Below, piece by piece: positions 9,121 to 59,140 of a DNA stretch of 64,000 bases. The notes beneath the pieces are model-generated. The model did not search any database. It saw only the letters and a list, made by a program, of their open reading frames with translations, and was not told the origin of the DNA. The DNA lies in contig NZ_KV440945.1 in assembly GCF_001636345.1 (NCBI RefSeq), positions 3,491,354 to 3,555,353 on the forward strand, written 5' to 3'. Position 1 is the stretch's first letter. Each line of letters opens with the position of its first letter. Made by a program: the position numbers and the translations under genes. The DNA is from Cytobacillus gottheilii. Lineage in GTDB: Bacteria; Bacillota; Bacilli; Bacillales; Cytobacillaceae.

Positions 9121-10083
9121 CTACCTTACCTTATTCCATTCAATCCAACGCAAAAGGTGAGCTCTACTATTTTCATACCATTGAGAACACAGGAAATACA
9201 ACTTCCCATAAATTCTTATGGGTTTTTTATAGTATCTACTATATCCTCTTGCATCTAGTTTTTGTAGTTGTAGATCTTTTGTTTCGTCTACTTCTAATAA
9301 CATCGGAAAATTTAGATTTAATTGTTGTTTAGAGTATTTTGAAGTTTGTAATAGCTGTATTTTTTCTAATGGCAACTGGTTACTAACCAGAATATCAATT
9401 AACTCATCTCTTACAATTACTCCTATTTTTCTTACGACTTTCTCTTCTAATAATGGTATATCCCTCTGCTCAGTTGGAGGCTTTATATATGTAATAGTCG
9501 ATGCACCGGGTTGTACACTTTGTTTTAATGTCTCTTGAATCCGATCTGATAACAATTGACTCTTTTTCATATAATTAAGAAGGTTTTCCCAGTTTGCCCA
9601 ATGTTCTTCCCATAATTCTTTATCAATAACTTCCTCAAAGTTAATCATTATTGGCTTACTCCAAGCCTCATAATTTTCTAGTCTAGCAATAATCTGATCT
9701 AAATGACTGACATTGCGGGTTTTAGGGGATAGTGGGGCGTCACTTTGGATCCAATCTTTCCAATATTTATTTCCTTTGGATTGATTGCATTTCCCACATG
9801 AAGGAACCAGGTTATTAATCTCGGATATATACCCGGTTGGCCTTCTCTTATGAATTAAAGGTCTAAAATGATCCCACTCTGAAAAAGAGTCTCCACAATA
9901 TGAGCACCTTATCGATTCCGTCATACCTAACATACTAAGAACTTCCTTAATTTCTGTTTCAGATGGTTCAATACATGGAATAATTCCATTAACAAAGGCA
10001 TTCGTAATACTAGAGCTTCGACCAGTAATCTTCACTGGATTAGGCATTTTAAAAAATGATTTATAGTTTTGTAGGATTTTCAT
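9121..10083 (-). CDS. HNH endonuclease
   Basis: This 320-residue protein carries an HNH/zinc nuclease core at residues 60-100: C60-X2-C63, the catalytic DH pair at 71-72 in the segment SEWDHFRP, then NLVPSC96-X2-C99-N. These are the zinc-binding CxxC pairs and metal-finger of the HNH class. The C-terminal 200 residues match nothing I recognise and may give target choice. It begins the accessory island and has an RBS (GAGGTG) before the ATG. It may act in phage or plasmid restriction, but no methyltransferase lies nearby, so a modification-dependent or abortive role is as likely. That is inference. Confidence 0.82.
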   Translation of the reverse strand: MKILQNYKSFFKMPNPVKITGRSSSITNAFVNGIIPCIEPSETEIKEVLSMLGMTESIRCSYCGDSFSEWDHFRPLIHKRRPTGYISEINNLVPSCGKCNQSKGNKYWKDWIQSDAPLSPKTRNVSHLDQIIARLENYEAWSKPIMINFEEVIDKELWEEHWANWENLLNYMKKSQLLSDRIQETLKQSVQPGASTITYIKPPTEQRDIPLLEEKVVRKIGVIVRDELIDILVSNQLPLEKIQLLQTSKYSKQQLNLNFPMLLEVDETKDLQLQKLDARGYSRYYKKPIRIYGKLYFLCSQWYENSRAHLLRWIEWNKVR

Positions 10084-10395: not shown

Positions 10396-12837
10396 CTATG
10401 GCGATAGTAACGAACCACCAAGACGCTCTTTCCTCTCAAAATGATAATGCAACCTATATTCACAAATATGTCTTGTCCAATTGTAGAGTATTTCTTCATC
10501 CATTTTGTGTACTTCAAACTCCAACTTAAATACTTCATTGTCAAAACTTATTAATCCTTTCGAATTACCGCTCCATTTAGACATAGGCATTTTAGAAATT
10601 AGGCTGCTAAGTCCCGGTTTATCATATTCCCAGAGTTTTTTAGAAGCTTTGTCTGAGAAATCAATATGTTTTCGGTATTCTTTTTCCATTAAATATTGAT
10701 AAAAGAAGGGTGCAACCTCTTCAGGTGTTATGCTCTCGTACCAATGACCAATTCCTCTGTCCAGCATAGCAAGCAGCACGACCATTTTATAGCTCTTGGC
10801 CATTCCTGTTTTTTCTGCTTCTATAAACCAATATTTATATCGTTCAAACACTCTTTCCTCTGCTTCACTTAATTCTTTAGCCCAGGATAGGAATCCATGA
10901 TAGGATTTAAACTCCTGACGATATTGGACTGAGTCTGATGCCCCTTTTAAATGTAATTCTAAATAACTTGGTCTTCTTCCCAATTCAAGTTTTAAATCTT
11001 TATAATCCTGATATAGTTTTTCTTTTCTAGGCTGTTTTTTTCTAATCATTTCTTTCAATAAATTAACAACCTTTACCTCAAGGTTGATTTCACACAATTC
11101 TGGCAGCATAGGCTCGAATGTTCTTTTTGTGTCTTTTTCTGTAATGTCAAACAAGCTTAGCTTAATATCAGCATTACGATAGTTGCCAATCATATCAATG
11201 ATATTGCAATGACTTTTTCCACTATGCAGTCGGAGACCACGACCAATTTGCTGTGTGAAGACAGTTAACGATTCAGTTGGACGAACAAATAATAGTGTAT
11301 CTACAGCTGGTATGTCGACCCCTTCATTAAAGAGGTCTACTGTGAAGATGACATCTAACTTTCCATCCTCAAGCTGTTTAATCGCATCCTGTCTTCCTAC
11401 TTCCATTTGCTTTGAATGGAGAGCCACTGTTTTAAAGCCGCTTTTGTTAAAGTAATTAGATAAAAAATTGGCCTGCCGAATAGAGGAACATAAGCCAATT
11501 GTTTTTGACTGTTTTTTCTCCAGCCAAGCCTTAAGAACTTTCTCTGCCATTTTATCATGGATCTGAACCTGCAATAGTTCTTCCTCATCATAACGATTAC
11601 CAAGCCAAGTAATTTGACTGTAATCCGTATCATCGTATACACCATAATATTTAAATGGAGAAAGCCATTTTCTTTCGATCGCATCAAGAAAATCTAATCG
11701 AAAGGCAACATTTCCATTACATATTGCATAGACATCTTTATTGTCATTTCTGTCTGGAGTGGCCGTAATACCTAAAAGAAATTTTGGCTGAAAATAGTCG
11801 AGTACCCTATTATAAGATGCAGCAGCTGCATGGTGAAATTCATCCACAATAATTAGATCAAATTCATCTGGCCCAAACACCTGCAGATGCGGCATCATAC
11901 TAAGCGTATAAATTGAGGCAAATATTATATTATTGTTGCTTTCTTTTTGCTTGCCATTATAAATTCCATACGACCTATCAGGCATAATTTTTTTAAAAGA
12001 ATGTTTTGCCTGATTTAGAATCTCCTCTCGATGTGCAATGAAAAGGATTCTTTTAAAATGTTGAGCAAAAAAACCCGCTAAATATGTTTTTCCAAGTCCA
12101 GTTGCCATGACAACAAGAGCCCGATTATATCCCTCATCTAGCGTTTTATTCAGCTCTTCTAATGCTTCAATTTGTGCAAAACGCGGCTGAATTACACTAT
12201 ATGATTCTTTATTTTCGTTAACTAGCTCTGCTTGCATTTCAAAGTTATTATCTATTTCGGAGGGAAGCATTAAATCCTGCTCCTCTGTTTTCGTCCACTC
12301 TTTTGCTAGATCCGGATGCTTCTTATGGTATTCCTCATATTCATACCGATATTCTTTCAGCGTTTCTCTATTTAAGGAGACAGTGTGTTCGGCATAGAAG
12401 ATATGTAAGAATTGTTGTAATGCCTCATTATAAGTATCAGTATGATTACTTACCGATAGATTCCATTCTACACCATGACTTAAAGCAGAAAGTGATAAAT
12501 TGGATGAACCAACAATAACACTTTCTTGGTCATTTGTATTAAAAAGGTAGGCTTTTGGATGAAACGAACTCCCATTGCTTTTCCAGAAACGGATCATAAT
12601 ATTTTCATGAATGGACAATAAAGCTTCAAGTGCATCAGGTTGTGTAATGAACAAATAATTCCCTGTACAAATCTTAATATCTGCTCCACGCTCAGCAGCT
12701 ACCTTTAATGCATTAGACAAATATTCAACACCTGACTTCATCGTAAACGAAGTCAATATACAAATAGTAGAGGCTGTCTCAATCTGCTTTAATAAGTATT
12801 TACCAAGCTGGTTTGTAATTAATTGAACATCACTCAT
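10396..12837 (-). CDS. PLD-nuclease/SF2 DEAD-like helicase fusion (second copy)
   Basis: This 813-residue protein joins an N-terminal phospholipase-D-like nuclease domain to an SF2 helicase. Seen: a single HKD-type motif (H93-P-K95, then VGSSN at 109-113), Walker A ATGLGKT at 245-251, a DEFH Walker B at 332-335, motif III GITATP, and motif VI QQIGRGLR. A C-terminal region of about 200 residues is unassigned. A single PLD motif implies dimerisation. I chose the ATG at 12837 (GAGG RBS 6 bases upstream) rather than an in-frame TTG at 12843. The gene overlaps the MazG-like gene by 8 bases, suggesting translational coupling. It is paralogous to the 962-aa protein upstream but clearly diverged. A DNA-targeting defence or repair role is inferred. 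Confidence 0.88.
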   Translation of the reverse strand: MSDVQLITNQLGKYLLKQIETASTICILTSFTMKSGVEYLSNALKVAAERGADIKICTGNYLFITQPDALEALLSIHENIMIRFWKSNGSSFHPKAYLFNTNDQESVIVGSSNLSLSALSHGVEWNLSVSNHTDTYNEALQQFLHIFYAEHTVSLNRETLKEYRYEYEEYHKKHPDLAKEWTKTEEQDLMLPSEIDNNFEMQAELVNENKESYSVIQPRFAQIEALEELNKTLDEGYNRALVVMATGLGKTYLAGFFAQHFKRILFIAHREEILNQAKHSFKKIMPDRSYGIYNGKQKESNNNIIFASIYTLSMMPHLQVFGPDEFDLIIVDEFHHAAAASYNRVLDYFQPKFLLGITATPDRNDNKDVYAICNGNVAFRLDFLDAIERKWLSPFKYYGVYDDTDYSQITWLGNRYDEEELLQVQIHDKMAEKVLKAWLEKKQSKTIGLCSSIRQANFLSNYFNKSGFKTVALHSKQMEVGRQDAIKQLEDGKLDVIFTVDLFNEGVDIPAVDTLLFVRPTESLTVFTQQIGRGLRLHSGKSHCNIIDMIGNYRNADIKLSLFDITEKDTKRTFEPMLPELCEINLEVKVVNLLKEMIRKKQPRKEKLYQDYKDLKLELGRRPSYLELHLKGASDSVQYRQEFKSYHGFLSWAKELSEAEERVFERYKYWFIEAEKTGMAKSYKMVVLLAMLDRGIGHWYESITPEEVAPFFYQYLMEKEYRKHIDFSDKASKKLWEYDKPGLSSLISKMPMSKWSGNSKGLISFDNEVFKLEFEVHKMDEEILYNWTRHICEYRLHYHFERKERLGGSLLSP

Positions 12838-13156
12838 CTTCAACCTCGATTAAGAAAATTCTCTCTTTAAAACCGCCTCGCTTATTAGCTTTTTCTTGTC
12901 GAACCTCTTCAAGCCTCTCAAAAGAAATGTCATGGTAATCTGCTAGAGCTCGGATAATTTCAAGAACATCTGCTAATTCTTCAATCGCCTCTTCTTTATT
13001 TGTTGCATTCACATACTCTTCAAGTTCCTCAAAGCTCTTTTTCTTAAGTTCTTCTATATATTCTGTACTATTTAATATCTTCGTCGTAAACTTTTTACCA
13101 GTCTTTTCAATGATCTCTGGGATGTGGTCTCTGACAAGTTTGTAGTAGGTTGGCAT
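12830..13156 (-). CDS. MazG-like nucleotide pyrophosphohydrolase
   Basis: This 108-residue all-alpha NTP pyrophosphohydrolase-fold protein has the metal-binding pattern ELEEYV...EAIEELADVLEII, i.e. ExxE followed by ExxD, typical of MazG and phosphoribosyl-ATP pyrophosphohydrolase relatives. It starts with the family-like YYKLVRDHIPEII. Relatives hydrolyse (d)NTPs or related nucleotides to monophosphates. It lies between two PLD-helicase genes (62 bases after one and overlapping the other by 8), so it is likely part of the same system. RBS GGAGG lies 9 bases before the ATG. Confidence 0.85.
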   Translation of the reverse strand: MPTYYKLVRDHIPEIIEKTGKKFTTKILNSTEYIEELKKKSFEELEEYVNATNKEEAIEELADVLEIIRALADYHDISFERLEEVRQEKANKRGGFKERIFLIEVEDE

Positions 13157-13218
13157 TCCTTAAACCTCCAATAGAATATTTACGTATTATACAGTTAAAA
13201 TTATAAATTAATTACGGC

Positions 13219-16107
13219 TTAAATCTCATTACCTTCAACAATATAACTATATAGATTCTGGTCAATAGTATCTTCCATAACCATATTCATATGAACAACA
13301 GGTTTACCATCTTTCATCACATCTTGCTGAACCGTATTCTTAACAGGCTTCGCTTTGCCTAGATAATAGAAGTCGGTGCCTTCATCGTCATCTTTTTTGA
13401 CAAAGATATGGAGATCAATATTATTTTCTTCTGCATTAATGATTGTTTTCACTTCTTCTGAATTTACTGTTCGGTTGCTACGTGTATACCATTTAAGTAC
13501 ATCCTGACTTAGAAGCTCATCACCATAGTTTACGCTCGATTCAATTTCATCTTTTTTATGATAGGTAATAAATATGGGACACGTCCTGTGTTTGGTTTTG
13601 TATCCAAATATAGTGCCGCTTTCGTCATTATGCCAATTCAATAGTTTACAAACATCCTTCCTTGAATACTTTTCATACAATGTAAGAGAATGAACGCAAT
13701 CGTATTTTTCACTTTTTTCTTTTGCACATAATAATAAGTCCATTACCATTGTTTTAAAGTAAGGATTCCCTACAAGACTTTCACGGATCTCTTCATTAAA
13801 CAAAAAGCAATTATCCTTCAAAGTGACAATTGGCTTGTCCCCATATTTCTTCTTAAAGACTTGCGTAAAAAATGACAAATCAAATATGCTTTTGACTGAT
13901 GCAATTGTATCTTCATCAATTTTGCAACCTTCTTTAGTTAAACGATTTATTAATTCCTCTTGCTCTCCCTTGCCGTGCTGCATTAGCAAATCCAACAATA
14001 CAATTTCGTGCTTACGCTTTCCGTTCAACAGCTCTATTGAAAGCATTGTTAAAACTTTATCTTCATAATTTGTAATAGCTGGTACTTCTTCTTTCATTTT
14101 TAATAAAAACTGATAGTAGTTAGAATATTTATCAACAATGACCACAGGATCGATAGAATGATGCTCAATAAAATCATAAAGGGATGGTGTTCTCCCAAGT
14201 CTATTTTTCAACTCAGTAAAGGCATCCTTTAAGATTTTAAGTGTTGTCAGATTACTGTTGTTTATTGCACTGAATATCCGCTTTTTTGCGACCTCTTCAA
14301 AATTGATCGTTGATACACCTTTGATATAGCTTGTATCCTTCGTATGTCGGCGGATATTATCTTTGTTTTGCGATTTATCTCCAGATAAAGCAATTGGAAT
14401 TATATAGTTATTTTTGTAGTTACCTATAAAATCAATTATCGTCACAAAATCCTTTGTCTTATGTTTACGAAGTCCGCGGCCAAGCTGCTGAATGAATATA
14501 ATACTAGATTGAGTTTGTCTTAACATCACAACCTGATTGATGCAGGGGATATCAATTCCCTCATTAAAAATATCTACAGTTAATATATAGTCCAATTGAC
14601 CATTTTCTAAGCGATTAACTTGAAGGGATCTCTCTTCTTGAGAATCATCGCCCGTTAACGCAACTGTTCGTAACCCTCTATCATTCAAGGCTGCTGATAA
14701 TTCTTCTGCTTCTTTTTTACGACTACAAAATATAAGTCCTTTTACCTCTTCACCAGAAAAACCATAATACTCAATCTTCTCGATAATATGCTTAACACGT
14801 TCCTCATTGACAAGCTTCGTTAAAATGGTTGCATCATCCACATTTTCTCCATTTATATCAAGATCCGTAACACCAAAATAGTGAAAAGGACAGAGCATAT
14901 CTTCTTCAAGTGCTTCTTGTAATCGAATTTCATAGGCAATGTTGTAATCAAATAGTTCGTAAATATTGAAGTCATCTGAACGTTCAGGCGTGGCAGTCAT
15001 GCCCATAAAAAATTTCGGTTGGAAGTAATCAATCACCTTTCGATACGATTGGGCACCCGCTTTATGCACTTCATCTATTAGAATATAGTCAAATTCCTGT
15101 GGATCAAATTCATTTAAAGTATCTTGTTTAGAAATCGTTTGAATGGTCGCAAATAAGTACTTAGCATTTATTTGCTTATTCGATCCCGATAAGATCCCAA
15201 AGTCTTCGTCTATTCCACCTAGAATTTTTTTAAAGTCTGATTTCGCCTTGTTTAAGATTTGCTCTCTATGTACAATAAAAAGCAAACGCTTAGGAGCAAA
15301 ACGCCTCACATCAAAAGCAGAAAGATAGGTTTTTCCTGTTCCAGTTGCCGAAATAATTAATCCCTTATCATTACCTGCTGCTCTGACTGATTCGATTTGT
15401 TGCAGTGCTGCTTGCTGCATCTTATTCGGAGCAATATTTAGTGACTCTTCAATCGCATTCGTCTGATATGGGGTAGGCATTTCTATAACTTTTTCTAACT
15501 CTCTGTTTTCAACAGTCTGAGAAAATGTCTTTTCGTATTCCTCAATCCATTCTTCTGTTAGAATCTTTGACTGCTCCCATACTTCTTCAAATTGGCTTTT
15601 AAAGTGATGAACAATTTCGCCGTTTTCAAGTGATGTTAATTTTACATTCCACTCATAATTAATCTTTAATGCATGTGCAGTTAAATTAGAGCTGCCTACA
15701 ATAAGTGAATAATGGGTATCATGGTTAAAAATGTAGCCTTTCGAGTGAAAGCCTTTTAAGTCTGTTAATCTCACTTCTACATTTTTGATCTTCATTAGTT
15801 CCCTGAACACTTTAGGCTGATTAAATTGTAGAAATGTCGAGGTTAGAATACGGCCTTTTACACCTTTTCGGTGAAGATCAAGAAAATGTGATTTAAGTGT
15901 AGCAAGACCGCTTTCTGTAATAAAAGCTACAGAAAAAATGAAGGATTTACTTTGATCAAGTTCTTCCAGTAATGTCGAAAGAACGTTTTCATTTTTCTTA
16001 AAATTATTTACTAATAGCTTTGGTTTATAACCACCAGATTTATTAAATTGTTTATCTATAAATCCCTTATGCAATGATGCTTCTAAGCTTTGAATCAAAT
16101 TATCCAT
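13219..16107 (-). CDS. PLD-nuclease/SF2 helicase with DUF3427-like C-terminus
   Basis: This 962-residue protein has an N-terminal PLD nuclease domain (H121-S-K123, VGSSN 137-141), an SF2 helicase core (ATGTGKT at 254-260, DEVH at 345-348, GMTATPERSD, QQLGRGLRKH), and a C-terminal segment like DUF3427 (HRTCPIFITYHKKDE ... FYYLGKAKPV). This three-part order is a known but poorly characterised family. It is the first gene of the three-gene operon. RBS GGAG lies 6-7 bases before the ATG. An IS3-family element begins only about 50 bases upstream, so the native promoter has probably been displaced. Confidence 0.9.
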   Translation of the reverse strand: MDNLIQSLEASLHKGFIDKQFNKSGGYKPKLLVNNFKKNENVLSTLLEELDQSKSFIFSVAFITESGLATLKSHFLDLHRKGVKGRILTSTFLQFNQPKVFRELMKIKNVEVRLTDLKGFHSKGYIFNHDTHYSLIVGSSNLTAHALKINYEWNVKLTSLENGEIVHHFKSQFEEVWEQSKILTEEWIEEYEKTFSQTVENRELEKVIEMPTPYQTNAIEESLNIAPNKMQQAALQQIESVRAAGNDKGLIISATGTGKTYLSAFDVRRFAPKRLLFIVHREQILNKAKSDFKKILGGIDEDFGILSGSNKQINAKYLFATIQTISKQDTLNEFDPQEFDYILIDEVHKAGAQSYRKVIDYFQPKFFMGMTATPERSDDFNIYELFDYNIAYEIRLQEALEEDMLCPFHYFGVTDLDINGENVDDATILTKLVNEERVKHIIEKIEYYGFSGEEVKGLIFCSRKKEAEELSAALNDRGLRTVALTGDDSQEERSLQVNRLENGQLDYILTVDIFNEGIDIPCINQVVMLRQTQSSIIFIQQLGRGLRKHKTKDFVTIIDFIGNYKNNYIIPIALSGDKSQNKDNIRRHTKDTSYIKGVSTINFEEVAKKRIFSAINNSNLTTLKILKDAFTELKNRLGRTPSLYDFIEHHSIDPVVIVDKYSNYYQFLLKMKEEVPAITNYEDKVLTMLSIELLNGKRKHEIVLLDLLMQHGKGEQEELINRLTKEGCKIDEDTIASVKSIFDLSFFTQVFKKKYGDKPIVTLKDNCFLFNEEIRESLVGNPYFKTMVMDLLLCAKEKSEKYDCVHSLTLYEKYSRKDVCKLLNWHNDESGTIFGYKTKHRTCPIFITYHKKDEIESSVNYGDELLSQDVLKWYTRSNRTVNSEEVKTIINAEENNIDLHIFVKKDDDEGTDFYYLGKAKPVKNTVQQDVMKDGKPVVHMNMVMEDTIDQNLYSYIVEGNEI

Positions 16108-16144: not shown

Positions 16145-16174
16145 AGTATAGTTTCATGGACACATCTTAGTTAA
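16145..16174 (-). promoter_or_regulatory. Possible hybrid promoter at the IS3 left end
   Basis: Reading the minus strand, TTAACT (16169-16174) lies inside the IS terminal repeat and TATACT (16145-16150) lies in flanking DNA, 18 bases apart. This could drive the PLD-helicase operon outward from the IS. The -35 match is 4 of 6, so this is a weak call. Confidence 0.35.
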
Positions 16175-16220
16175 GTTTTTCCATATTTGACTAAAATGTA
16201 AATGAAAGGATGTGTCCTTT

Positions 16221-16499
16221 ATGGGTAACCAAAATGTAAGCAAAAAATTTAATGAAGAATTCAAAAAAATGGTGGTTGATCTTTATAGCTCAGGTAGTGC
16301 AGTAAAAGATTTAAGTAGCGAATATGGCGTATCTGAAGTAACCATTTACAAATGGATTAAGAGGTTCACTCCTATGAACTTGGAGGATGGGACTTCTGTT
16401 ACGACGGATGACTTCATCCAGTTAAAAAAGCAGATGCGCGGTCTTCAAGAGGAAAACGAAATCTTAAAAAAGGCTATGGCCATATTCGCGAGAAAGTAA
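16221..16499 (+). CDS. IS3-family transposase OrfA
   Basis: This 92-residue protein (starting MGNQNVSKKF) has a helix-turn-helix (VKDLSSEYGVSEVTIYKWIK) and a C-terminal leucine-zipper-like coil (LKKQMRGLQEENEILKKAM). I chose the ATG at 16221, which has an AAAGGA box upstream; a GTG at 16212 is also possible. An A6G slippery run at 16466-16472 near its end fits -1 programmed frameshifting to give the OrfAB transposase. Confidence 0.88.
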   Translation: MGNQNVSKKFNEEFKKMVVDLYSSGSAVKDLSSEYGVSEVTIYKWIKRFTPMNLEDGTSVTTDDFIQLKKQMRGLQEENEILKKAMAIFARK

Positions 16500-17374
16500 G
16501 CATTACTGAGCTATCCACCATCATTGAACAACATAAGGATCAATATGCTGTTCAAACTCTATGTGATGTATTAGAAATCCCAAGGAGTACGTATTATCAA
16601 TCTTTTGAAGCTGTTGAGTCTAATCGTGAACGTGAAAATAAAGAGCTAACCAAAAGAATTATTGAAATTCACGCAGAAAGTAAACAGCGTTATGGGGCTC
16701 CAAAGATTCATAAGATCCTTCAAAAAGAAGGTTATTTAGTGAGCCTAAAAAGAGTGCAGCGTTTAATGACTAAGGCAGGTATCAGATCCATTATTCAGCA
16801 GAAATATCGCCCATATTCAAGTAAATGTAAGGTGGAAGAACGTGATAACCTATTAAACAGGGACTTTTCTACTACAACCATTAACGAGAAATGGGTGGCA
16901 GATATTACGTATATCCATACACTTAGAGATGGTTGGTGCTATTTAGCTTCTGTGCTGGATTTACATTCTAAAAAGATTGTTGGATATTCATTTTCACGCA
17001 CAATGACAACAGACTTGGTGATTCATGCATTAGATAATGCATATGAAACTCAAAACCCGAAGGAAGGACTCATTATCCACACGGATTTAGGATCTCAATA
17101 CACAAGTGAAGAGTTCTCAAATATTGTTCTATCAAGAGGCATGAAGCAGTCATTCAGTCAAAAAGGTTGCCCATACGATAATGCTTGTATTGAATCATTT
17201 CATGCCATTTTAAAGAAAGAAGAAGTCCACCGTGTCAGATACTTAGATTATAATTCAGCCAAAATGGCTCTATTTCAATACATTGAAGGCTGGTACAATC
17301 GCAAAAGAATTCATAGCAGCATCGGCTATCGAACACCACAAGAGGTAGAGTACAGCATTCGGCATGTCGCTTAA
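16473..17374 (+). CDS. IS3-family transposase OrfB (DDE integrase domain, made by -1 frameshift)
   Basis: The -1 frame is open from the A6G slippery site through to the TAA at 17374, about 300 codons. Seen: an HTH_21-type segment (KRIIEIHAESKQRYGAPKIH) and a DDE/rve core with D in WVADITY, D in HTDLGSQYTS and E in CIESFHAILKKE, ending IHSSIGYRTPQEVEY. There is no good independent RBS, so expression as an OrfAB fusion is expected. The gene looks intact, so the element may be active. Confidence 0.88.
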
Positions 17375-17403
17375 TCTCTAACTTGAGATTGTGCACCCGC
17401 TTT

Positions 17404-17499
17404 ACATGGAGTGGCGGGCATGATAGCCTCGTCTGGCGATGCCGATGTTGTGACATCTGGCTTCTCGGCAGGGAACATATGCCCGCAGAGGCTCCATGT
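17404..17499. ncRNA. Large inverted-repeat structure in the IS3 3' noncoding tail
   Basis: ACATGGAG (17404-17411) pairs with CTCCATGT (17492-17499), then GCGGGCAT (17414-17421) pairs with ATGCCCGC (17479-17486), and an inner GATGT-tgtg-ACATC hairpin lies in the middle. The region is much richer in GC than its surroundings and is inside the IS. It could be a structured RNA, a DNA hairpin or a captured repeat. The call as RNA is inference. Confidence 0.4.
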
Positions 17500-17636
17500 C
17501 AAGCGTCATGGCCAACCCACTATAATTGAGGCAAGTGTTCAAAAAATGTTAACTTATTTGTGTCCAAAAATTTGACTCAGATCCATATATTAATTTTAAT
17601 ACCCATATTTTTTGGATGCAATTTATTTTTATAACA

Positions 17637-17680: not shown

Positions 17681-18082
17681 TTATTTAATATTTAAAGTAC
17701 CAGATAATTTTTCGACTGCTGGGATATCTGCAGGTGCCCAATCAAGTGAAGTAAGTTCATTCGCTGATAACCATTCAATTGAAACATGTTCGGTTAGCAC
17801 CGGTTTTCCTTCGACCAATTTACAACTGAAGGTCGTTAGATGAACAATTCCGAAGTCATACTCATACACCGTATGATCGACCTGCTCTCCTATTTCAATT
17901 TTACAATTCATTTCTTCTCTAATTTCTCGTTTTAATGCCTCTTGTGGAGATTCTCCCTCCTCAATTTTCCCACCTGGAAATTCCCATTTATAAGGAAGAG
18001 CTTTCCCTGGGCCTCTTTGTGCGCATAGAATTTTATCGTTATCGATAATGATTGCACCGACAACATGGATGTTTTTTTTCAT
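17681..18082 (-). CDS. Nudix hydrolase, MutT-like (8-oxo-dGTP diphosphatase type)
   Basis: This 133-residue protein carries a complete Nudix box GGKIEEGES...REIREEM at residues 38-60 and an N-terminal VVGAIIIDNDKILCAQR, with FPGGKIEEGE as in (deoxy)nucleoside triphosphate pyrophosphohydrolases. Known role of the family: removal of oxidised nucleotides or other nucleoside diphosphate derivatives. It lies inside the island of nucleic-acid enzymes, between the IS and the SNase gene, which is divergent. RBS AAGGAGG is before the ATG. Confidence 0.88.
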   Translation of the reverse strand: MKKNIHVVGAIIIDNDKILCAQRGPGKALPYKWEFPGGKIEEGESPQEALKREIREEMNCKIEIGEQVDHTVYEYDFGIVHLTTFSCKLVEGKPVLTEHVSIEWLSANELTSLDWAPADIPAVEKLSGTLNIK

Positions 18083-19800: not shown

Positions 19801-22800
19801 GTGGATTCTTCTGCTTTACAGATAGATAAAACAGTTCGATTATTTACTTACTTAAGAGAGTTGTCATTGTTAAAGACACCTTTGATTCGGGATATTCAAA
19901 ACTACGAAAATTATGTATTCCTCAATGAAATTCCAGATGATAAAGATTGTATTTCTCCACTGACTAGTACTGCTAAGGATATATGGATTGAAATTAAGAA
20001 ACCGGTAAGACCCGAATTTCCTTCTATTCCAATTTCACTAAGTGATTGGATCTCTCCTTCATATAAGCCTGAGAACATTGATCCTGAACCAAGCTTGCTG
20101 GACAGAATCACGAATCCAGATTATGAGGATGATGATACTTCTGATAGTGAGGATCAATATCTTTATTTGAGTGACTTTCCGGATATTCAGCGAAATTATG
20201 ATACTTACATGTTTGATCTATGGCAGCCATGGAAAGAAGAATATATACGGTATGAAAAGGTTCAAAACATTTATACTAAATTATTCTCGGTTTATCAAAA
20301 GCAAAAAAAGCTTGGTGAACAGTATGAATTGATCGCTTGCGCTGGTCTGTTAAATTGGAAGGCGCCAGATGACCAGCTTGTGCACCGTCATATTTTAACG
20401 ACTTCTTGTTCATTTGAATTTGATTCAAACAATGGCTTGATCAGGGTGCTTCCAACATCTGAAGGCGTAAAGGCTGAACTGGAGCAAGATATGCTTGAAC
20501 TCGAGAATCGCCTTGATAATACTGCATTAAAGTCGATTCAGGACATACTTGAAGAATTACAAATGGATTTCTGGAATAAAGAGCTGATTGATTCTATTTG
20601 CAGATCATTTGTATTTTCACTATCTGCTAATGGGACTTATAAGGAAGCAGAATTAAACAATAAAAAAGATAGTCCAAAGCAGCCTGACATTCTATACAGC
20701 CCAGCTCTGATTCTTAGAAAGAAAACAGAAAAGGGTTTCCAGCAAGCTTGCTCAAAGATTATTGAAAATGTGAAAGAATCTGCTGACGCTATACCATTCG
20801 GGATTAAGAGAATTTTCGAGGAAATGGATGATTATCAGGATTCTGCAGGTTTATCAGCTGAAGGTTCTGCCAATTTTGAGATGGAGGATCAAACTGTTTA
20901 TTTTCCGCTTGAAGCGAATGATGAGCAGCGAAAGATCATTTCTAATCTTGAAACTCGAAACGGTGTCCTTGTTCAAGGTCCTCCCGGAACTGGGAAAAGT
21001 CATACGATAGCCAATTTGATTTCTCATCTTCTTTCCTCTGGTCAAAGAGTGCTAATTACAAGTGAAACGGCACGCGCTTTGAAAGTACTAAAAGATAAAA
21101 TTCCAAGTGACCTGCAAGATCTTTGCGTAAGTTTGTTAGGAGCCGATACAAAATCGTTTAAAGATTTAGAGAAGGTTGTGCAAATTATTTCAAACAATCG
21201 GGATACATGGGATAGTGATTTTGTTCAATCTGAAATTACCAGACTTACGGCTCAACTAAAATCACTGAAAGAAAAGGAAGCATCCACTCGCCATCAGCTC
21301 AGATCTATTCGCGAAAAGGACACATTTGAACACCATTTCCTAAATGGCGCATATAAGGGTACAGCCCAAACAATCGCTGACCAGATTAGGAGAGAGCGCG
21401 ATCGCTATAGCTGGTTAAAAGATACGCTAGCAATGGATGCTCAGTGCCCGCTATCGCAAGCTGAATTGACTGAACTGCTTAACTTGCTGCAGGTTTTGGA
21501 TGACAATGTGCAAGAGCAGATTCAATCCTCTTTTCCACCTGTTGAGGTTTTAGAAAACGAAGAAGTTCTTACTCAAAATGCAAACCGAGAAAAGGTTATA
21601 TTAGATGAATTAAAAGAATATGGACAAGTTCATAGCGAAGAATATAATCAGTTATCCATTTTAACTTCAGAAAAACGAGAATCATTAAGTCAAACACTGC
21701 ATGAATTATCAGCGGTATACACAGGGCTTAATCGATTAAATGGTGAGTGGGTATTTACTGCTATAGATGACCTGGAGAATTCAAAATTCAGACCTTGGGA
21801 AGAGTTTTATAATCAAATGATCCAGTCAATTGGGTCCGTTAAAGACTTGGCAGCCAAACATAGCTTAGCTGAAATACATGGAATTGGTGAAACCCCGCTT
21901 TCACAATTATTTGCAGATGTATCCATGCTGCATGCTCACTTAAAAGAAGGTAAAGGTATGGGCCTGCCTATGATGCGTCCAAAAGCAGTAAAAGATGCAT
22001 GGTATATTGTGAAAGATGTTCGCATTGATGGACGCAAGTGTGACACACTCGAGTCTGTCAGTCTATTAGAAGAAACGGTTAGAGTGGATCATACACTTAA
22101 AAAGATGGAAATGATGATCCTTGATCATCTTAAGGTTCAGATGACTCTAGCTCAATCACGTTCTTTAAATATGGCGAATATAGAAGACATCATTGAGCCA
22201 TTTAAACTGCTGCTGGCAGCGAAGGGGCACATTGATCAAATCAAGCAAGAGTACACAGACATACCATTTATTATGGATCAGCCTCTTCGTGAGAAGAATG
22301 TAACGGCTATATTGTCTTTCTTAAAAGCCATTTCATTAAATGAAGAGCTAAAGGCAATTCGAGATATGTTCCAGCAGCTGATTGAAAAGGTACAGCGCTC
22401 CGTTGATCAAAATGAAAAACATATACTGGTCGATCAGCTAATAAACGCAGTTTTGAATCGAGATATTGTAAACTACAAGGATAGCATTACAAAAGTGGTT
22501 GAACTTGATCAGTACGGAAAAATGAGTTTGCGATGTGACAAGCTTTTACAGAGATTTAAAGCCATTCTGCCTCAAGTTTATGCAGACCTTCTTCATTCAT
22601 TTGATGCACAAATATGGACTGAGAGATTTACTGTTTTAGAAAATGCAATGAACTGGGCAAAAGTGAATTCATGGCTCATTCATTTTTCTAAAAGCAGTGA
22701 AACGGAATTATTAAAGGGTCTGAATGAGATAGAAGCGCAAATTCACAAAACCATTACAGACTTAGGTGCACATAAAGCATGGTATTCCACATTGAGCACC

Positions 22801-24648
22801 ATGACAGAGGGTCAGCGACAGCATTTGCTTGCCTGGACAACTTCGATGCGGAAAGTTGGAAAAGGAACAGGTAAAAATGCACATGTTCATCTGCGCGATG
22901 CGCAAAAACATATGTCAGAATGCCGTGATGCAATTCCAGCCTGGATCATGCCTCTTTACCGTGTGTTTGAAACCTTTGATGTGAAGCCAAACTTATTTGA
23001 TGTTGTCATTATTGACGAGGCAAGTCAATCTGGTCCAGATGCTGTCATTCTTCAGTATATTGCTAAAAAGCTGATTGTCGTTGGAGATGATAAGCAAATT
23101 AGTCCTGAGTATGTAGGGATTAAACGTGAAGACATTCAGTATCTACGCAGCCAATATTTAAATGACTTTAAATTGGCAGACATGCTGGACATCGAAAACT
23201 CATTCTTTGATCTTGCTAATGTGCTCTTTGGCGGCCGTATTACTTTACGGGAACATTTTAGATGTATGCCGGAAATCATTGAATTCTCAAACAGAATCAG
23301 TTATACCAATACACCCCTGATTCCATTAAGACAATACCCGCCTAACCGTCTGGAACCGGTCAGAACCGTGCATGTGCCAACCGGCTATAGAGAAGGTGCT
23401 GGATCAAAAGTATTTAATCAGCCTGAAGCAGAAGCGATTGTTTCACAAATTAAGTCATGTATTAAAGATCCGCTATATAAAGATAAATCCATTGGGGTCA
23501 TCTCTTTACAGAGTGAAGGACAAGCACAATTAATTGAACGATTATTAGTTGACGAAATTGGAACAGAAGAAATTGAGAAAAGAAACATCATTTGCGGTGA
23601 TGCATATGCATTCCAAGGTGACGAACGAGATATTATGTTCCTGAGTATGGTAGCTGCTCCTGGACAAACGGCTATGAGAGCTGTCACAACGGAAAAGGAT
23701 AAAAGAAGATTTAATGTTGCAGTCAGCCGTGCCAAAGATCAACTCTGGCTTTACCATACGCCAAGTGTCAACGATTTCCGCAATAAAGAATGCTTAAGAT
23801 ACCAACTCATTTCTTACTGTGAAAACCCAGCAAAAGAAATATTGGAATCCAACCGTGCTCTTTGTGAAAGCGACTTTGAACGTTCTGTGTTTGATCAAAT
23901 TACAGCAAGAGGCTACAGAGTTATCCCACAGCATGAAGTGGCCAACTATCGAATTGATATGGTTGTTGAAGGAGATAAAGGCAGAATTGCTGTTGAATGT
24001 GACGGAGATCAATGGCATGGTCCGGACCAATACAATTATGATATGAATCGCCAAAGAATCCTTGAAAGATGCGGCTGGAAATTCTGGAGAGTAAGAGGCA
24101 GTGATTACTATTACGATCCAGAGAAAGCCCTGTCTTCCTTATGGGATACATTGAAATATTATGAAATTGAGCCAATTGGATATGAAAAGGAAACTAAGTC
24201 TTCTATAACTGAAAGCGAAGCAGCTACTATAGAAGAAAATGAATCTTCATCTGCAAGTTTTTCTGATGTTGATCCAATTGCCGCTATGGAAGAAACAAAA
24301 TCGAGTATAGCTGCCTCAATGGAAGAAGTTATCACTGTGGTTGAGCGCATTCCAGCAACTACAATTGAATCTGCAACCGAAGAAAATAGTACAGTTATTA
24401 ATCCTGTACAAGATACAGTGAAAGCCGAGTTATCTCCAAAAGCCAACCTTAAACAATTCTTAATCAGCAAAGGACTTGAGGTTGTTGATATGAGGGATAA
24501 ACAAGGTGCTCTTTGGTTAATTGGAGGTCAGGAACTTTCGAGTATGATCGACGACCTGCGTAAAGATGGAATTGCCTTCACATACGCTTATAATGGCAGT
24601 AAATCAACCAATAGACAGCCTGCTTGGTTTACTTCTTACCGAGATTAA
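19801..24648 (+). CDS. SF1 (Dna2/Upf1-like) helicase fused to a Vsr/DUF559-like nuclease
   Basis: This 1615-residue protein starts at a GTG with AGGAAGGA upstream. Order seen: an N-terminal region of about 370 residues of unknown fold (two acidic stretches), Walker A QGPPGTGKSHT near 390-400, a long helical insertion of about 600 residues, the Walker B DVVIIDEASQ near 1067, VVGDDKQISPEY, GDAYAFQGDERDI and the VAVSRAKDQLWL motif VI, then a restriction-like domain near 1370-1450 (YRIDMVVEG, VECDGDQWHG, WKFWRVRG), a Ser/Glu-rich linker and a C-terminal module (GALWLIGGQEL ... AWFTSYRD). Single-gene systems of helicase plus Vsr-like nuclease are associated with phage defence. Function here is inferred. 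Terminator follows. Confidence 0.88.
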   Translation: MDSSALQIDKTVRLFTYLRELSLLKTPLIRDIQNYENYVFLNEIPDDKDCISPLTSTAKDIWIEIKKPVRPEFPSIPISLSDWISPSYKPENIDPEPSLLDRITNPDYEDDDTSDSEDQYLYLSDFPDIQRNYDTYMFDLWQPWKEEYIRYEKVQNIYTKLFSVYQKQKKLGEQYELIACAGLLNWKAPDDQLVHRHILTTSCSFEFDSNNGLIRVLPTSEGVKAELEQDMLELENRLDNTALKSIQDILEELQMDFWNKELIDSICRSFVFSLSANGTYKEAELNNKKDSPKQPDILYSPALILRKKTEKGFQQACSKIIENVKESADAIPFGIKRIFEEMDDYQDSAGLSAEGSANFEMEDQTVYFPLEANDEQRKIISNLETRNGVLVQGPPGTGKSHTIANLISHLLSSGQRVLITSETARALKVLKDKIPSDLQDLCVSLLGADTKSFKDLEKVVQIISNNRDTWDSDFVQSEITRLTAQLKSLKEKEASTRHQLRSIREKDTFEHHFLNGAYKGTAQTIADQIRRERDRYSWLKDTLAMDAQCPLSQAELTELLNLLQVLDDNVQEQIQSSFPPVEVLENEEVLTQNANREKVILDELKEYGQVHSEEYNQLSILTSEKRESLSQTLHELSAVYTGLNRLNGEWVFTAIDDLENSKFRPWEEFYNQMIQSIGSVKDLAAKHSLAEIHGIGETPLSQLFADVSMLHAHLKEGKGMGLPMMRPKAVKDAWYIVKDVRIDGRKCDTLESVSLLEETVRVDHTLKKMEMMILDHLKVQMTLAQSRSLNMANIEDIIEPFKLLLAAKGHIDQIKQEYTDIPFIMDQPLREKNVTAILSFLKAISLNEELKAIRDMFQQLIEKVQRSVDQNEKHILVDQLINAVLNRDIVNYKDSITKVVELDQYGKMSLRCDKLLQRFKAILPQVYADLLHSFDAQIWTERFTVLENAMNWAKVNSWLIHFSKSSETELLKGLNEIEAQIHKTITDLGAHKAWYSTLSTMTEGQRQHLLAWTTSMRKVGKGTGKNAHVHLRDAQKHMSECRDAIPAWIMPLYRVFETFDVKPNLFDVVIIDEASQSGPDAVILQYIAKKLIVVGDDKQISPEYVGIKREDIQYLRSQYLNDFKLADMLDIENSFFDLANVLFGGRITLREHFRCMPEIIEFSNRISYTNTPLIPLRQYPPNRLEPVRTVHVPTGYREGAGSKVFNQPEAEAIVSQIKSCIKDPLYKDKSIGVISLQSEGQAQLIERLLVDEIGTEEIEKRNIICGDAYAFQGDERDIMFLSMVAAPGQTAMRAVTTEKDKRRFNVAVSRAKDQLWLYHTPSVNDFRNKECLRYQLISYCENPAKEILESNRALCESDFERSVFDQITARGYRVIPQHEVANYRIDMVVEGDKGRIAVECDGDQWHGPDQYNYDMNRQRILERCGWKFWRVRGSDYYYDPEKALSSLWDTLKYYEIEPIGYEKETKSSITESEAATIEENESSSASFSDVDPIAAMEETKSSIAASMEEVITVVERIPATTIESATEENSTVINPVQDTVKAELSPKANLKQFLISKGLEVVDMRDKQGALWLIGGQELSSMIDDLRKDGIAFTYAYNGSKSTNRQPAWFTSYRD

Positions 24649-53898: not shown

Positions 53899-54016
<118 letters not shown>

Positions 54017-54020
54017 TATT

Positions 54021-54167
54021 GTTCGGAAATCGATCAGCTGCACATCTCTTCGTCATCTCACTCGTCAAGGTCCTCACGTACCAACTACGTACGTTCCGGC
54101 CTTTCCTCACTCGATTCCTCGACCTGTTTGCTTCTCGCTTCCCTCATGGTTTTATAAAAAGATAAGT
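54021..54167 (-). repeat. Spacer block copy 2 (23S-5S spacer, next to 5S)
   Basis: Nearly identical to 57191-57336, from GTTCGGAAAT to AAAAAGATAAGT on the plus strand, with scattered changes. It lies directly upstream (minus strand) of 5S. Confidence 0.9.
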
Positions 54168-54210
54168 TTTGACTTATTTTTTACAACCATTTTAAGAAGA
54201 AAGGTTATTC

Positions 54211-54229
54211 CTTCAAAACTAGATAATGG
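54211..54229 (-). other. 23S rRNA processing stem, 3' arm
   Basis: CTTCAAAACTAGATAATG is complementary to the sequence at 57420-57438. The pair would close a stem bringing both ends of the 23S together for RNase III/Mini-III cleavage. Confidence 0.65.
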
Positions 54230-54254
54230 CAGACAAGTTCATTGAAATATATTG

Positions 54255-57187
<2,933 letters not shown>

Positions 57188-57190
57188 AGT

Positions 57191-57336
57191 GTTCGGAAAT
57201 TGATAAGCTACACATCTCTTTGTCATCTCACTCGTCAAGGTCCTCGCGTACCAACTACGTACGTTCCGGCCTTTCCTCACTTGATTCCTCGACCTGTTTG
57301 CTTCTCGCTTTCCTCACGGTTGGTAAAAAGATAAGT
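57191..57336 (-). repeat. Spacer block copy 1 (16S-23S spacer, next to 23S)
   Basis: First copy of the block shared with the 23S-5S spacer. No tRNA gene is found in this 400-base spacer. Confidence 0.9.
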
Positions 57337-57419
57337 GTGAATACACATACTTTTTACGCTCGCGGTTATTGTTCTTGTGTTAGAAGAACTTACTTTATTT
57401 CAATGATGTCTTGTCATTT

Positions 57420-57438
57420 CATTATCTAGTTTTCAAGG
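57420..57438 (-). other. 23S rRNA processing stem, 5' arm
   Basis: CATTATCTAGTTTTCAAGG pairs with 54211-54229. Confidence 0.65.
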
Positions 57439-57530
57439 AACAATGCCACTTACTTCAATCATATTAAGATTGAACTTCGCAGCTATTCATCATGCTGTCT
57501 TTCGACAACTGATATTTGAGAGATTATTCT

Positions 57531-57557
57531 CTCAAAACTAAACAAGCAGAAACGTCA
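57531..57557 (-). other. 16S rRNA processing stem, 3' arm
   Basis: CTCAAAACTAAACAAGCAGA and the next seven bases are complementary to 59206-59234. Confidence 0.65.
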
Positions 57558-57584
57558 TTTTAATGAAGATAAACTTCATTTCAT

Positions 57585-59140
<1,556 letters not shown>

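What the first reader, a model, noticed from the sequence alone, without database searches (positions are those of the whole stretch)
10396..16107. Three-gene operon: two diverged PLD-nuclease/SF2-helicase fusions flanking a MazG-like pyrophosphohydrolase
Seen: two proteins of 962 and 813 aa, both with an N-terminal HxK...SSN nuclease motif and a full SF2 helicase core, and between them a 108-aa NTP-pyrophosphohydrolase-fold protein. The gaps are 62 bases and an 8-base overlap, so one transcript is very likely. The two helicases differ in C-terminus: only the longer one has a DUF3427-like end. Established: PLD nucleases, helicases and MazG-like enzymes are recurrent parts of defence systems. 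Inference: a system in which two nuclease-helicases act together or on different targets while the MazG-like enzyme cleaves a nucleotide (depletion or signal control). I know of no described system with exactly this layout.
Basis: partly seen in the sequence, partly recalled or inferred. Interest (0 to 1): 0.78.

Follow-up and report, generated by a model that had tools for sequence, protein, structure and literature searches.

The report
SauUSI-type gene beside MazG-helicase pair
One of the two big enzymes is a relative of SauUSI, a known enzyme that shreds foreign DNA carrying methylated cytosine; the other two genes form a separate, widely conserved pair in which a small predicted nucleotide-destroying enzyme travels with a DNA-cutting motor that lacks the usual recognition domain, hinting that restriction of modified DNA comes with its own nucleotide clean-up crew.

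Summary
The three ORFs, motifs and spacings are real. Gene A (962 aa) matches SauUSI over its full length (7clg, 1020 bits), so it belongs to a known Type IV restriction family. B (108 aa, MazG-like) and C (813 aa, PLD nuclease + SF2 motor, no DUF3427) are the conserved unit: B lies directly upstream of C in 73 of 80 C loci across Bacillota. C is not a cut-down SauUSI; proteins with and without DUF3427 fall on two sides of one branch.

The A + B-C layout recurs: a DUF3427 helicase, mostly with a NUDIX gene, lies within 1.2 kb of C or B-C in 19 of 80 loci. Of 40 examined B relatives without C, 10 sit by McrBC, 7 by SauUSI-like enzymes, 1 by Mrr; no type I gene was found there. A HIT nucleotide hydrolase accompanies, is fused to, or perhaps replaces B.

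Best reading: modification-dependent restriction with a nucleotide-pool arm (MazG/NUDIX/HIT) that removes modified dNTPs, so that host DNA does not become a target. The anatomy is shown; B's substrate and C's target are inferred. Against it: 22 of those 40 B genes have no such enzyme nearby. I found no paper describing this pairing in my searches.

The parts
13219..16107 (-). Gene A: SauUSI-family Type IV restriction enzyme (PLD nuclease, SF2 motor, coupler, SRA target-recognition domain), 962 aa
   Evidence: Pfam; PADLOC mREase_IV PDLC03658 over residues 1-957, 1064.6 bits; PDB 7clg (SauUSI) residues 2-957, 1020 bits
15739..15747 (-). HxK nuclease motif of A (H121, K123)
   Evidence: aligns with SauUSI H119/K121 (residue numbers from PMC7913695)
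13240..14046 (-). DUF3427 region of A (residues 688-956); in SauUSI the corresponding part is the second coupler subdomain plus the SRA-fold target-recognition domain
   Evidence: PF11907 295.7 bits; domain limits (coupler 618-805, TRD 806-953) from PMC7913695
12830..13156 (-). Gene B: MazG-like all-alpha NTP pyrophosphohydrolase, 108 aa
   Evidence: AlphaFold2 pLDDT 95.8; best Foldseek hits are MazG/PRA-PH structures, none at E <= 0.001
12968..13030 (-). EExxE-(12)-ExxD metal-binding motif of B (E43, E44, E47, E60, D63)
   Evidence: invariant in 36 sequences
12830..12837 (-). 8-bp overlap of B and C (translational coupling likely)
   Evidence: same overlap in 43 of 56 family loci
10396..12837 (-). 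Gene C: PLD nuclease + SF2 motor + first coupler subdomain + own C-terminal region, no DUF3427, 813 aa
   Evidence: AlphaFold2 pLDDT 84.5, pTM 0.54; best Foldseek hit SauUSI 7clg, E 1e-42
12553..12561 (-). HxK nuclease motif of C (H93, K95)
   Evidence: invariant in 40 sequences
17681..18082 (-). NUDIX hydrolase of the NUDIX-SauUSI module (PADLOC PDC-S07, 192.4 bits; best NCBIfam PRK10546, pyrimidine dNTP diphosphatase, nearly tied with PRK08999, both below cut-off)
   Evidence: NUDIX-A-B order in G030, G032, G046, G108
16157..17566 (+). IS3-family element inserted between NUDIX and A
   Evidence: inverted repeats 16157-16180/17543-17566, 79% complementary; transposase domains; a second copy at 100% identity in the genome
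17637..17671 (.). Terminator-like hairpin just after the NUDIX gene (16 pairs, 5 of them G-C)
   Evidence: called by the scan on the + strand only; the stem is also present read from the - strand, where the T run is shorter

Best explanation
The window holds two joined restriction modules. Module 1 is NUDIX + gene A, a SauUSI-type enzyme: by analogy with SauUSI, its SRA domain binds 5-methyl- or 5-hydroxymethylcytosine in foreign DNA, the SF2 motor translocates, and PLD nuclease dimers shred the DNA. Module 2 is B + C: C is a PLD-nuclease/SF2 motor of a sister clade without DUF3427, probably co-translated with the MazG-like enzyme B. B, like NUDIX and HIT at related loci, most likely hydrolyses modified deoxynucleoside triphosphates (for example 5-methyl- or 5-hydroxymethyl-dCTP, whether made by a phage or recycled from shredded DNA). 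They are then not built into the host chromosome, where they would invite self-cleavage. Shown: gene content, domains, intact active-site motifs, conservation and linkage. Inferred: B's substrate, C's DNA target, and that B and C (or A and C) act together.
For: A = SauUSI family over its full length; SauUSI's activity and SRA recognition are from PMC7913695 passages. B next to C in 73 of 80 loci and 51 of 56 family loci. Of 40 examined B relatives not next to C, 18 have an McrBC (10), SauUSI-like (7) or Mrr (1) enzyme adjacent or within 1.5 kb. HsdM and HsdR (representatives checked) were found in none of those 40 stretches nor in 40 further B loci, and none of the N6-methylase matches listed falls in the 40 stretches, although such genes occur in 96 of 193 family genomes. 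Other nucleotide hydrolases recur: NUDIX in the same stretch as 16 of 21 second helicases, HIT in 14 of 30 Clostridia-type C loci, and a HIT-MazG fusion. HIT lies within 2.5 kb of C in 4 of 5 loci that truly lack B against 4 of 73 that have it (Fisher p 2e-4, distance chosen after seeing the data). Precedent: the MazG-like human DCTPP1 prefers 5-methyl-dCTP; in MCF-7 cells its knock-down raised 5-methyl-dCTP about 2.8-fold and DNA methylation nearly three-fold (PMC4491611 passages).
Against: No substrate is known for B or this NUDIX, and no target for C; C lacks the domain that makes SauUSI modification-dependent, so 'Type IV' for C is inference. 22 of the 40 C-less B genes have no such enzyme within 1.5 kb; 18 of those 22 have an HNH family of unknown specificity in the stretch. 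Two of the 10 McrBC neighbours also carry a C5-cytosine methylase next to McrB (L256, L261), where 5mC may protect rather than mark. B also borders NERD nucleases (5 of 72 neighbours) and Wadjet JetA (1 of 72 and 2 of 77), so it is not confined to enzymes of modified DNA. 8 of 30 Clostridia-type C genes have neither B nor HIT within 1.5 kb (2 of them at contig edges). Counting only directly adjacent HIT genes, the B/HIT contrast is weak (2 of 5 against 4 of 73, p 0.045). The B profile was built from C-adjacent B genes, so counts from B searches favour C neighbours, and the 40 were 40 of about 98 listed matches away from C.
Confidence: 0.45

Rival explanations
1. B is a regulator (an antitoxin-like partner) of C: it binds C and a nucleotide, and a phage-driven change in the dNTP pool releases the otherwise unspecific nuclease-motor C.
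For: Strict adjacency and an 8-bp overlap suggest co-translation and equal dosage; C lacks a recognisable target-recognition domain and needs some other switch.
Against: B also neighbours unrelated McrBC, Mrr and SauUSI enzymes in other gene orders; HIT or a HIT-MazG fusion can stand in its place; the catalytic acids are invariant; 5 of 80 C genes truly lack B.
Confidence: 0.2
2. B is an effector: on infection it hydrolyses canonical dNTPs and starves phage replication (depletion defence), while C or A degrades DNA.
Against: No sensor or switch coupled to B was recognised among the neighbours. Its companions NUDIX and HIT belong to house-cleaning types (family knowledge, recalled). B sits with several nuclease families rather than with one sensor.
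Confidence: 0.12
3. B stops the phage from using its modified dNTP, so that phage DNA is made with ordinary bases and becomes open to the host's other restriction enzymes (a counter to base modification rather than protection of self).
For: Same chemistry as the best explanation; would also fit the two McrBC loci with a C5-methylase.
Against: Where B neighbours a modification-dependent enzyme, that enzyme would lose its own substrate.
Confidence: 0.13
4. Generic defence-island hitch-hiking: B, NUDIX and HIT are mobile house-cleaning genes that merely accumulate near restriction genes, and C is a repair enzyme.
For: 22 of 40 C-less B genes have no McrBC, SauUSI-like or Mrr gene nearby; NERD and JetA genes also border B; the window lies in a mixed region with an IS element and a large SF1-helicase/endonuclease.
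Against: 73 of 80 adjacency across Bacillota, no type I gene found in 80 B stretches, repeated joining to different DUF3427 helicases, sporadic presence and frequent breakage of C, which is unlike a core repair gene.
Confidence: 0.1

Closest known systems
SauUSI (Type IV restriction enzyme, PDB 7clg; PADLOC mREase_IV PDLC03658)
   Same: Gene A: similar length, same domain order and catalytic HxK, full-length match. Gene C: same nuclease and motor and the first coupler subdomain; best structural hit.
   Different: C lacks DUF3427 (second coupler subdomain and SRA domain) and falls outside the DUF3427 clade; SauUSI is described as a single polypeptide sufficient for activity (passage of PMC3874153), whereas C comes with B.
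NUDIX (MutT-like) genes beside SauUSI homologues
   Same: Noted in a figure legend of PMC7641849 for Streptococcus (passage); same NUDIX-A pairing here.
   Different: The passage seen gives no function, and 'MazG' does not occur in that paper's text.
Human DCTPP1 / bacterial MazG
   Same: MazG-type enzyme; DCTPP1 hydrolyses 5-methyl-dCTP (PMC4491611 passages). B keeps the EExxE...ExxD motif.
   Different: B is only distantly similar (PF03819 MazG 13.9 bits, below its cut-off of 22); its substrate is unknown.
PbeA (phosphorothioate-linked restriction, recalled) and DrmC (DISARM)
   Same: PLD and/or SF2 domains; PADLOC matches: PbeA 144 bits (A) and 109 bits (C); DrmC 18.5 bits (A) and 26 bits (C).
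   Different: Partial and weaker than the matches to mREase_IV.
Mokosh and Druantia (helicase-nuclease systems)
   Same: Helicase plus nuclease themes (Druantia in the listing; Mokosh recalled).
   Different: No Mokosh or Druantia model is among the PADLOC hits shown for A, B or C (the best 25 of 26 for A and of 29 for C, one weak hit of another kind for B).

Membership tests
SauUSI family (gene A) | N-terminal PLD nuclease with HxK | tested here: met
   H121/K123 align with SauUSI H119/K121; PLDc_2 50.6 bits over cut-off 27
SauUSI family (gene A) | SF2 helicase-like ATPase and coupler | tested here: met
   ResIII and Helicase_C over cut-off; continuous alignment over residues 2-957
SauUSI family (gene A) | C-terminal DUF3427/SRA target recognition domain | tested here: met
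   PF11907 295.7 bits
SauUSI family (gene A) | ATP-dependent cleavage of 5mC/5hmC DNA | not testable with these tools
   needs purified protein
SauUSI family (gene C) | PLD nuclease plus SF2 motor | tested here: met
SauUSI family (gene C) | DUF3427/SRA domain | tested here: not met
   absent from C; 14 of 36 helicases scanned carry DUF3427, the same number as those longer than 900 aa (the scan does not name members); the 22 short ones are one side of a branch (SH-aLRT 99)
All-alpha NTP pyrophosphohydrolase (MazG/PRA-PH) superfamily (gene B) | EExxE...ExxD metal site and helical fold | tested here: met
   invariant residues; PRA-PH 23.0 over 21.3; all-helical model
MazG family proper (PF03819) or HisE (TIGR03188) | match over the curated cut-off | tested here: not met
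   PF03819 13.9 of 22; TIGR03188 16.2 of 42.7
All-alpha NTP pyrophosphohydrolase superfamily (gene B) | NTP pyrophosphohydrolase activity and substrate | not testable with these tools
   needs enzymology
Type IV (modification-dependent) restriction (B-C unit) | restriction of modified, not unmodified, DNA | not testable with these tools
   suggested only by relatives and neighbours
Mokosh / DISARM | match to MkoA-C, or a strong DrmC match | tested here: not met
   no Mko hit among the best 25 shown for A and C, none for B; DrmC at most 26 bits

The most novel reading that the evidence does not exclude
Modification-dependent restriction in Bacillota has a previously unrecognised nucleotide-pool arm: MazG-like, HIT and NUDIX hydrolases, interchangeable and sometimes fused, that destroy modified dNTPs so that the host genome never acquires the mark its own enzymes cut. 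The B-C unit is a new DUF3427-free branch of PLD-SF2 restriction enzymes that depends on this arm and often joins a SauUSI-type partner.
Probability: 0.35. Interest if true: 0.8.

Novelty: new variant of a known kind. Interest (0 to 1): 0.62.

Why it matters
Type IV enzymes cut DNA that carries a modified base, so a host that salvages modified nucleotides from a shredded phage could mark itself. The linkage of MazG-like, NUDIX and HIT hydrolases with several unrelated enzymes of this kind gives a concrete, cheap hypothesis (a modified-dNTP pyrophosphatase as self-protection) and points to a widespread two-gene restriction unit, for which I found no description, whose target is unknown.

Tried and rejected
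Rejected: (1) a strict three-gene system: among the fetched family loci no SauUSI-type A at >50% identity stands by B-C except in the window. (2) C as a truncated SauUSI: proteins without DUF3427 form their own side of the tree. (3) Mokosh/DISARM membership. (4) The window's HNH gene (9121-10083) as part of the unit: only partial matches to it were found, in 2 of 56 family loci (L082, L086). (5) A phage origin: of 34 viral-contig hits the strongest was 32% identical over residues 3-605 of C, and the most identical 47% over 241 residues. Plasmid hits (546 records, all under 60% identity) were followed up only for two records. Led nowhere: Foldseek for B (no hit at E <= 0.001), as expected for a small helical protein; a mosaic origin of B (5' half nearer A-B units, 3' quarter nearer B-C units, 4 and 6 comparison sequences) is suggestive only.

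Papers: what I saw. Passages only: PMC7913695, PMC3874153, PMC7159879, PMC7641849, PMC13092281, PMC12839542, PMC4491611. In PMC11090510 my term search found none of its terms (63). All others were seen as search listings or starts of abstracts. The statement that the MazG/Type IV pairing is not in print rests on searches of this library only, whose lists were capped, 114 papers held at least two terms and none of the 25 listed contained 'MazG'.

Full report
WHAT IS THERE. The three ORFs lie on the minus strand exactly as described: A 16107..13219, B 13156..12830, C 12837..10396, with a 62-bp gap and an 8-bp overlap. Upstream of A are an IS3-family element (inverted repeats 16157-16180/17543-17566; a second copy at 100% identity elsewhere in the genome) and then a NUDIX gene (18082..17681) followed by a hairpin. 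The region is AT-richer than what precedes it (GC 0.33-0.37 at 9-21 kb against 0.42-0.45 at 1-8 kb).

GENE A IS A KNOWN KIND. A matches PDB 7clg, the SauUSI restriction endonuclease, from residue 2 to 957 (1020 bits), and PADLOC's Type IV model PDLC03658 over residues 1-957 (1064.6 bits). Its HxK motif aligns with SauUSI H119/K121, and DUF3427 is present (295.7 bits). In SauUSI the TRD (residues 806-953) has an SRA fold for 5-methylcytosine, and the enzyme translocates and shreds DNA between sites (PMC7913695 passages). Relatives of A at >=62% identity occur in 22 of 193 family genomes, plus an 81%-identical N-terminal fragment in one more.

B AND C ARE THE CONSERVED UNIT. C homologues (E <= 1e-120) occur in 57 of 193 family genomes, in none of the window's own genus apart from the window's genome: a patchy gene. 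In the 56 fetched family loci, B lies upstream of C in 51. Of the other 5, two are cut by contig ends (L080, L087) and three hold only truncated C (L084, L085, L090); 43 of the 56 show exactly the 8-bp overlap. Two of the other seven are cut by contig ends (L153, L154); five truly lack it (L115, L120, L131, L145, L146). The active-site residues named above are invariant in the 36 B and 40 C sequences aligned (mostly intact copies were chosen). Several C copies are split or carry stops, which fits a defence gene rather than a core gene.

C IS NOT A CUT-DOWN SauUSI. By sequence C aligns with SauUSI only up to residue 671, the end of the first coupler subdomain (618-669; and PMC7913695 passage). 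Its last 150 or so residues are conserved among C proteins (for example S682-Y683-K684-M685) but were not matched to SauUSI by sequence, and might hold a reader of their own. The model (pLDDT 84.5, pTM 0.54) has 7clg as best hit (E 1e-42, rmsd over 20 A, so domain placement is unsure). Of 36 helicases scanned, 14 carry DUF3427 and 14 are longer than 900 aa; the scan does not name members, so that these are the same is inferred. On a tree of nuclease and motor columns the 22 short and 14 long proteins are the two sides of one branch (SH-aLRT 99; quick method, one very long branch, L306). Most short ones outside Bacilli were chosen for having B, so the tree does not by itself show an ancient B-C link.

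INDEPENDENT SAMPLE. Searching 398 phylum genomes with a Clostridia-type C gave matches in 36. In 30 of these, looking up to 1.5 kb to each side: B in 17, HIT in 14, at least one in 22, neither in 8 (two of these at contig edges). A HIT-MazG fusion occurs (L316/L328, the same locus). In the five Bacilli-type loci without B, HIT lies within 2.5 kb of C in 4, against 4 of 73 with B (p 2e-4, distance chosen afterwards); counting only directly adjacent HIT genes it is 2 of 5 against 4 of 73 (p 0.045; HIT domain checked for the four).

THE A + BC LAYOUT RECURS. A second PLD-SF2 helicase with DUF3427 lies in 21 of the 80 stretches (DUF3427 in 21 of the 23 proteins, the other two being the type I controls), in 19 within 1.2 kb of C or B-C (one of the 19, L100, is a broken copy). 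A NUDIX gene is in the stretch in 16 of 21. By identity to A and by length they are of three kinds: 6 SauUSI-type (>=55%), 9 at about 37%, 6 of 1049-1093 aa (L162 stands apart in the tree). They stand upstream or downstream and on either strand. L137 and L160 (Planococcus) show NUDIX-A-B-C in the window's order, with A-B gaps of 20 and 45 bp. In the family loci only the 36-37% kind was seen beside B-C, in 6 of 56 (L043, L069, L070, L071, L075, L086). Scattered at random, well under one such neighbourhood would be expected among 80 (my rough estimate); clustering of defence genes raises this by an amount I did not measure.

B KEEPS COMPANY WITH OTHER ENZYMES OF MODIFIED-DNA RESTRICTION. B homologues occur in 120 of 193 family genomes. 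Of about 98 listed matches away from C I fetched 40, mostly the higher-scoring ones with short open frames. McrBC (DUF2357/PDDEXK_7 with an McrB-type AAA protein) is adjacent in 10; SauUSI-like genes are adjacent or within 1.5 kb in 7 (in four as NUDIX-A-B, as in the window: L242, L243, L250, L278); Mrr in 1; an HNH family of about 335 aa is in the stretch in 25, partly overlapping these. One stretch holds a remnant of C (L254). No HsdM or HsdR was found in these or in 40 further B stretches (one checked representative each), and none of the N6-methylase matches listed lies in the first 40, although such genes occur in 96 of 193 family genomes. Type I genes do occur in some B-C stretches (for example N6-methylases near G129 and G132 loci; an HsdM cluster in 4 of 80). 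In 40 of 57 listed B loci outside the family, a C- or A-like helicase is in the stretch in 26, but this search was seeded with C-adjacent B genes and is biased. The nearest relatives of the window's A (85-86% identical, G030, G032, G046) have B just downstream and no C. The window's B is nearest these in its first half and nearest B-C units at its end, so the layout may have arisen by joining two units at a shared B. This is suggestive only.

MECHANISM. The common factor of MazG-like, NUDIX and HIT proteins is hydrolysis of nucleotides (family knowledge). The window NUDIX scores best with the pyrimidine dNTP diphosphatase model PRK10546 (95.9 bits, below its cut-off of 156; PRK08999 95.5). That this family (Orf135/NudG) acts on 5-methyl-dCTP is recalled; one search listed papers holding these terms, which I did not open. 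The MazG-like human DCTPP1 hydrolyses 5-methyl-dCTP, and its knock-down raised 5-methyl-dCTP and DNA methylation (PMC4491611). Hence the proposal that B keeps modified dNTPs out of host DNA in a cell that carries an enzyme cutting such DNA. Steps shown: gene content, motifs, linkage. Steps inferred: substrate, C's target, benefit to the host. Results against it: 22 of 40 C-less B genes have no such enzyme within 1.5 kb; two McrBC loci include a C5-methylase (L256, L261); B also borders NERD and JetA genes; C has no recognisable modified-base reader.

KNOWN OR NEW. NUDIX beside SauUSI is already mentioned in a figure legend (PMC7641849), and MazG is listed as an untested predicted defence domain (PMC13092281). 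I found no account of the B-C unit, of the DUF3427-free clade, or of MazG/HIT with Type IV enzymes (searches, capped lists). I class it as a new variant of a known kind: the enzymes are familiar, the unit and the proposed division of labour are not.

Noticed in passing
window 19801-24648 (+): 1615-aa protein with SF1 helicase (AAA_11/AAA_12) and REase_MTES_1575 endonuclease domains; PADLOC candidate PDC-S37 with weaker Hhe/Mokosh matches: another likely defence gene beside the locus.
   Followed up: partly
window 16157-17566; L278 10445-11666: IS3-family element between NUDIX and SauUSI in the window; transposase-like short ORFs (by eye, no family scan) lie between the same two genes in G108, perhaps an independent insertion.
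   Followed up: partly
window 9121-10083 (-): 320-aa protein with an HNH domain (residues 60-106) downstream of C; relatives of it appear in L253 (three ORFs) but it is not a constant neighbour of B-C.
   Followed up: partly
L240, L241, L243, L276 and others: A family of about 335-aa proteins with a C-terminal HNH domain lies in the stretch of 25 of 40 C-less B loci, mostly right beside B: a second unexplained B partner.
   Followed up: partly
L316 4566-5309; L328 3809-4552 (same locus): HIT-MazG fusion protein (247 aa) directly downstream of a C-like helicase.
   Followed up: partly
L256, L261: C5-cytosine methylase - McrB - McrC - MazG gene order, reminiscent (recalled) of LlaJI-like restriction-modification.
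   Followed up: no
L131 6416-11430; L243 9928-12194: A protein that looks like DUF262/GmrSD by its sequence (recalled, not scanned) sits between HIT and C in L131, and another lies next to NUDIX in L243. One of the 77 B neighbours outside the family matched GmrSD_N.
   Followed up: no
G070, G073, G075, G079, G081, G084, G087, G088 (family genomes): MazG-like domain inside longer open frames of 284-312 aa in one genus: possible fusions to another domain.
   Followed up: no
window 53899-59140 (-): Complete 16S-23S-5S rRNA operon; ARAGORN found no tRNA gene in the window.
   Followed up: no
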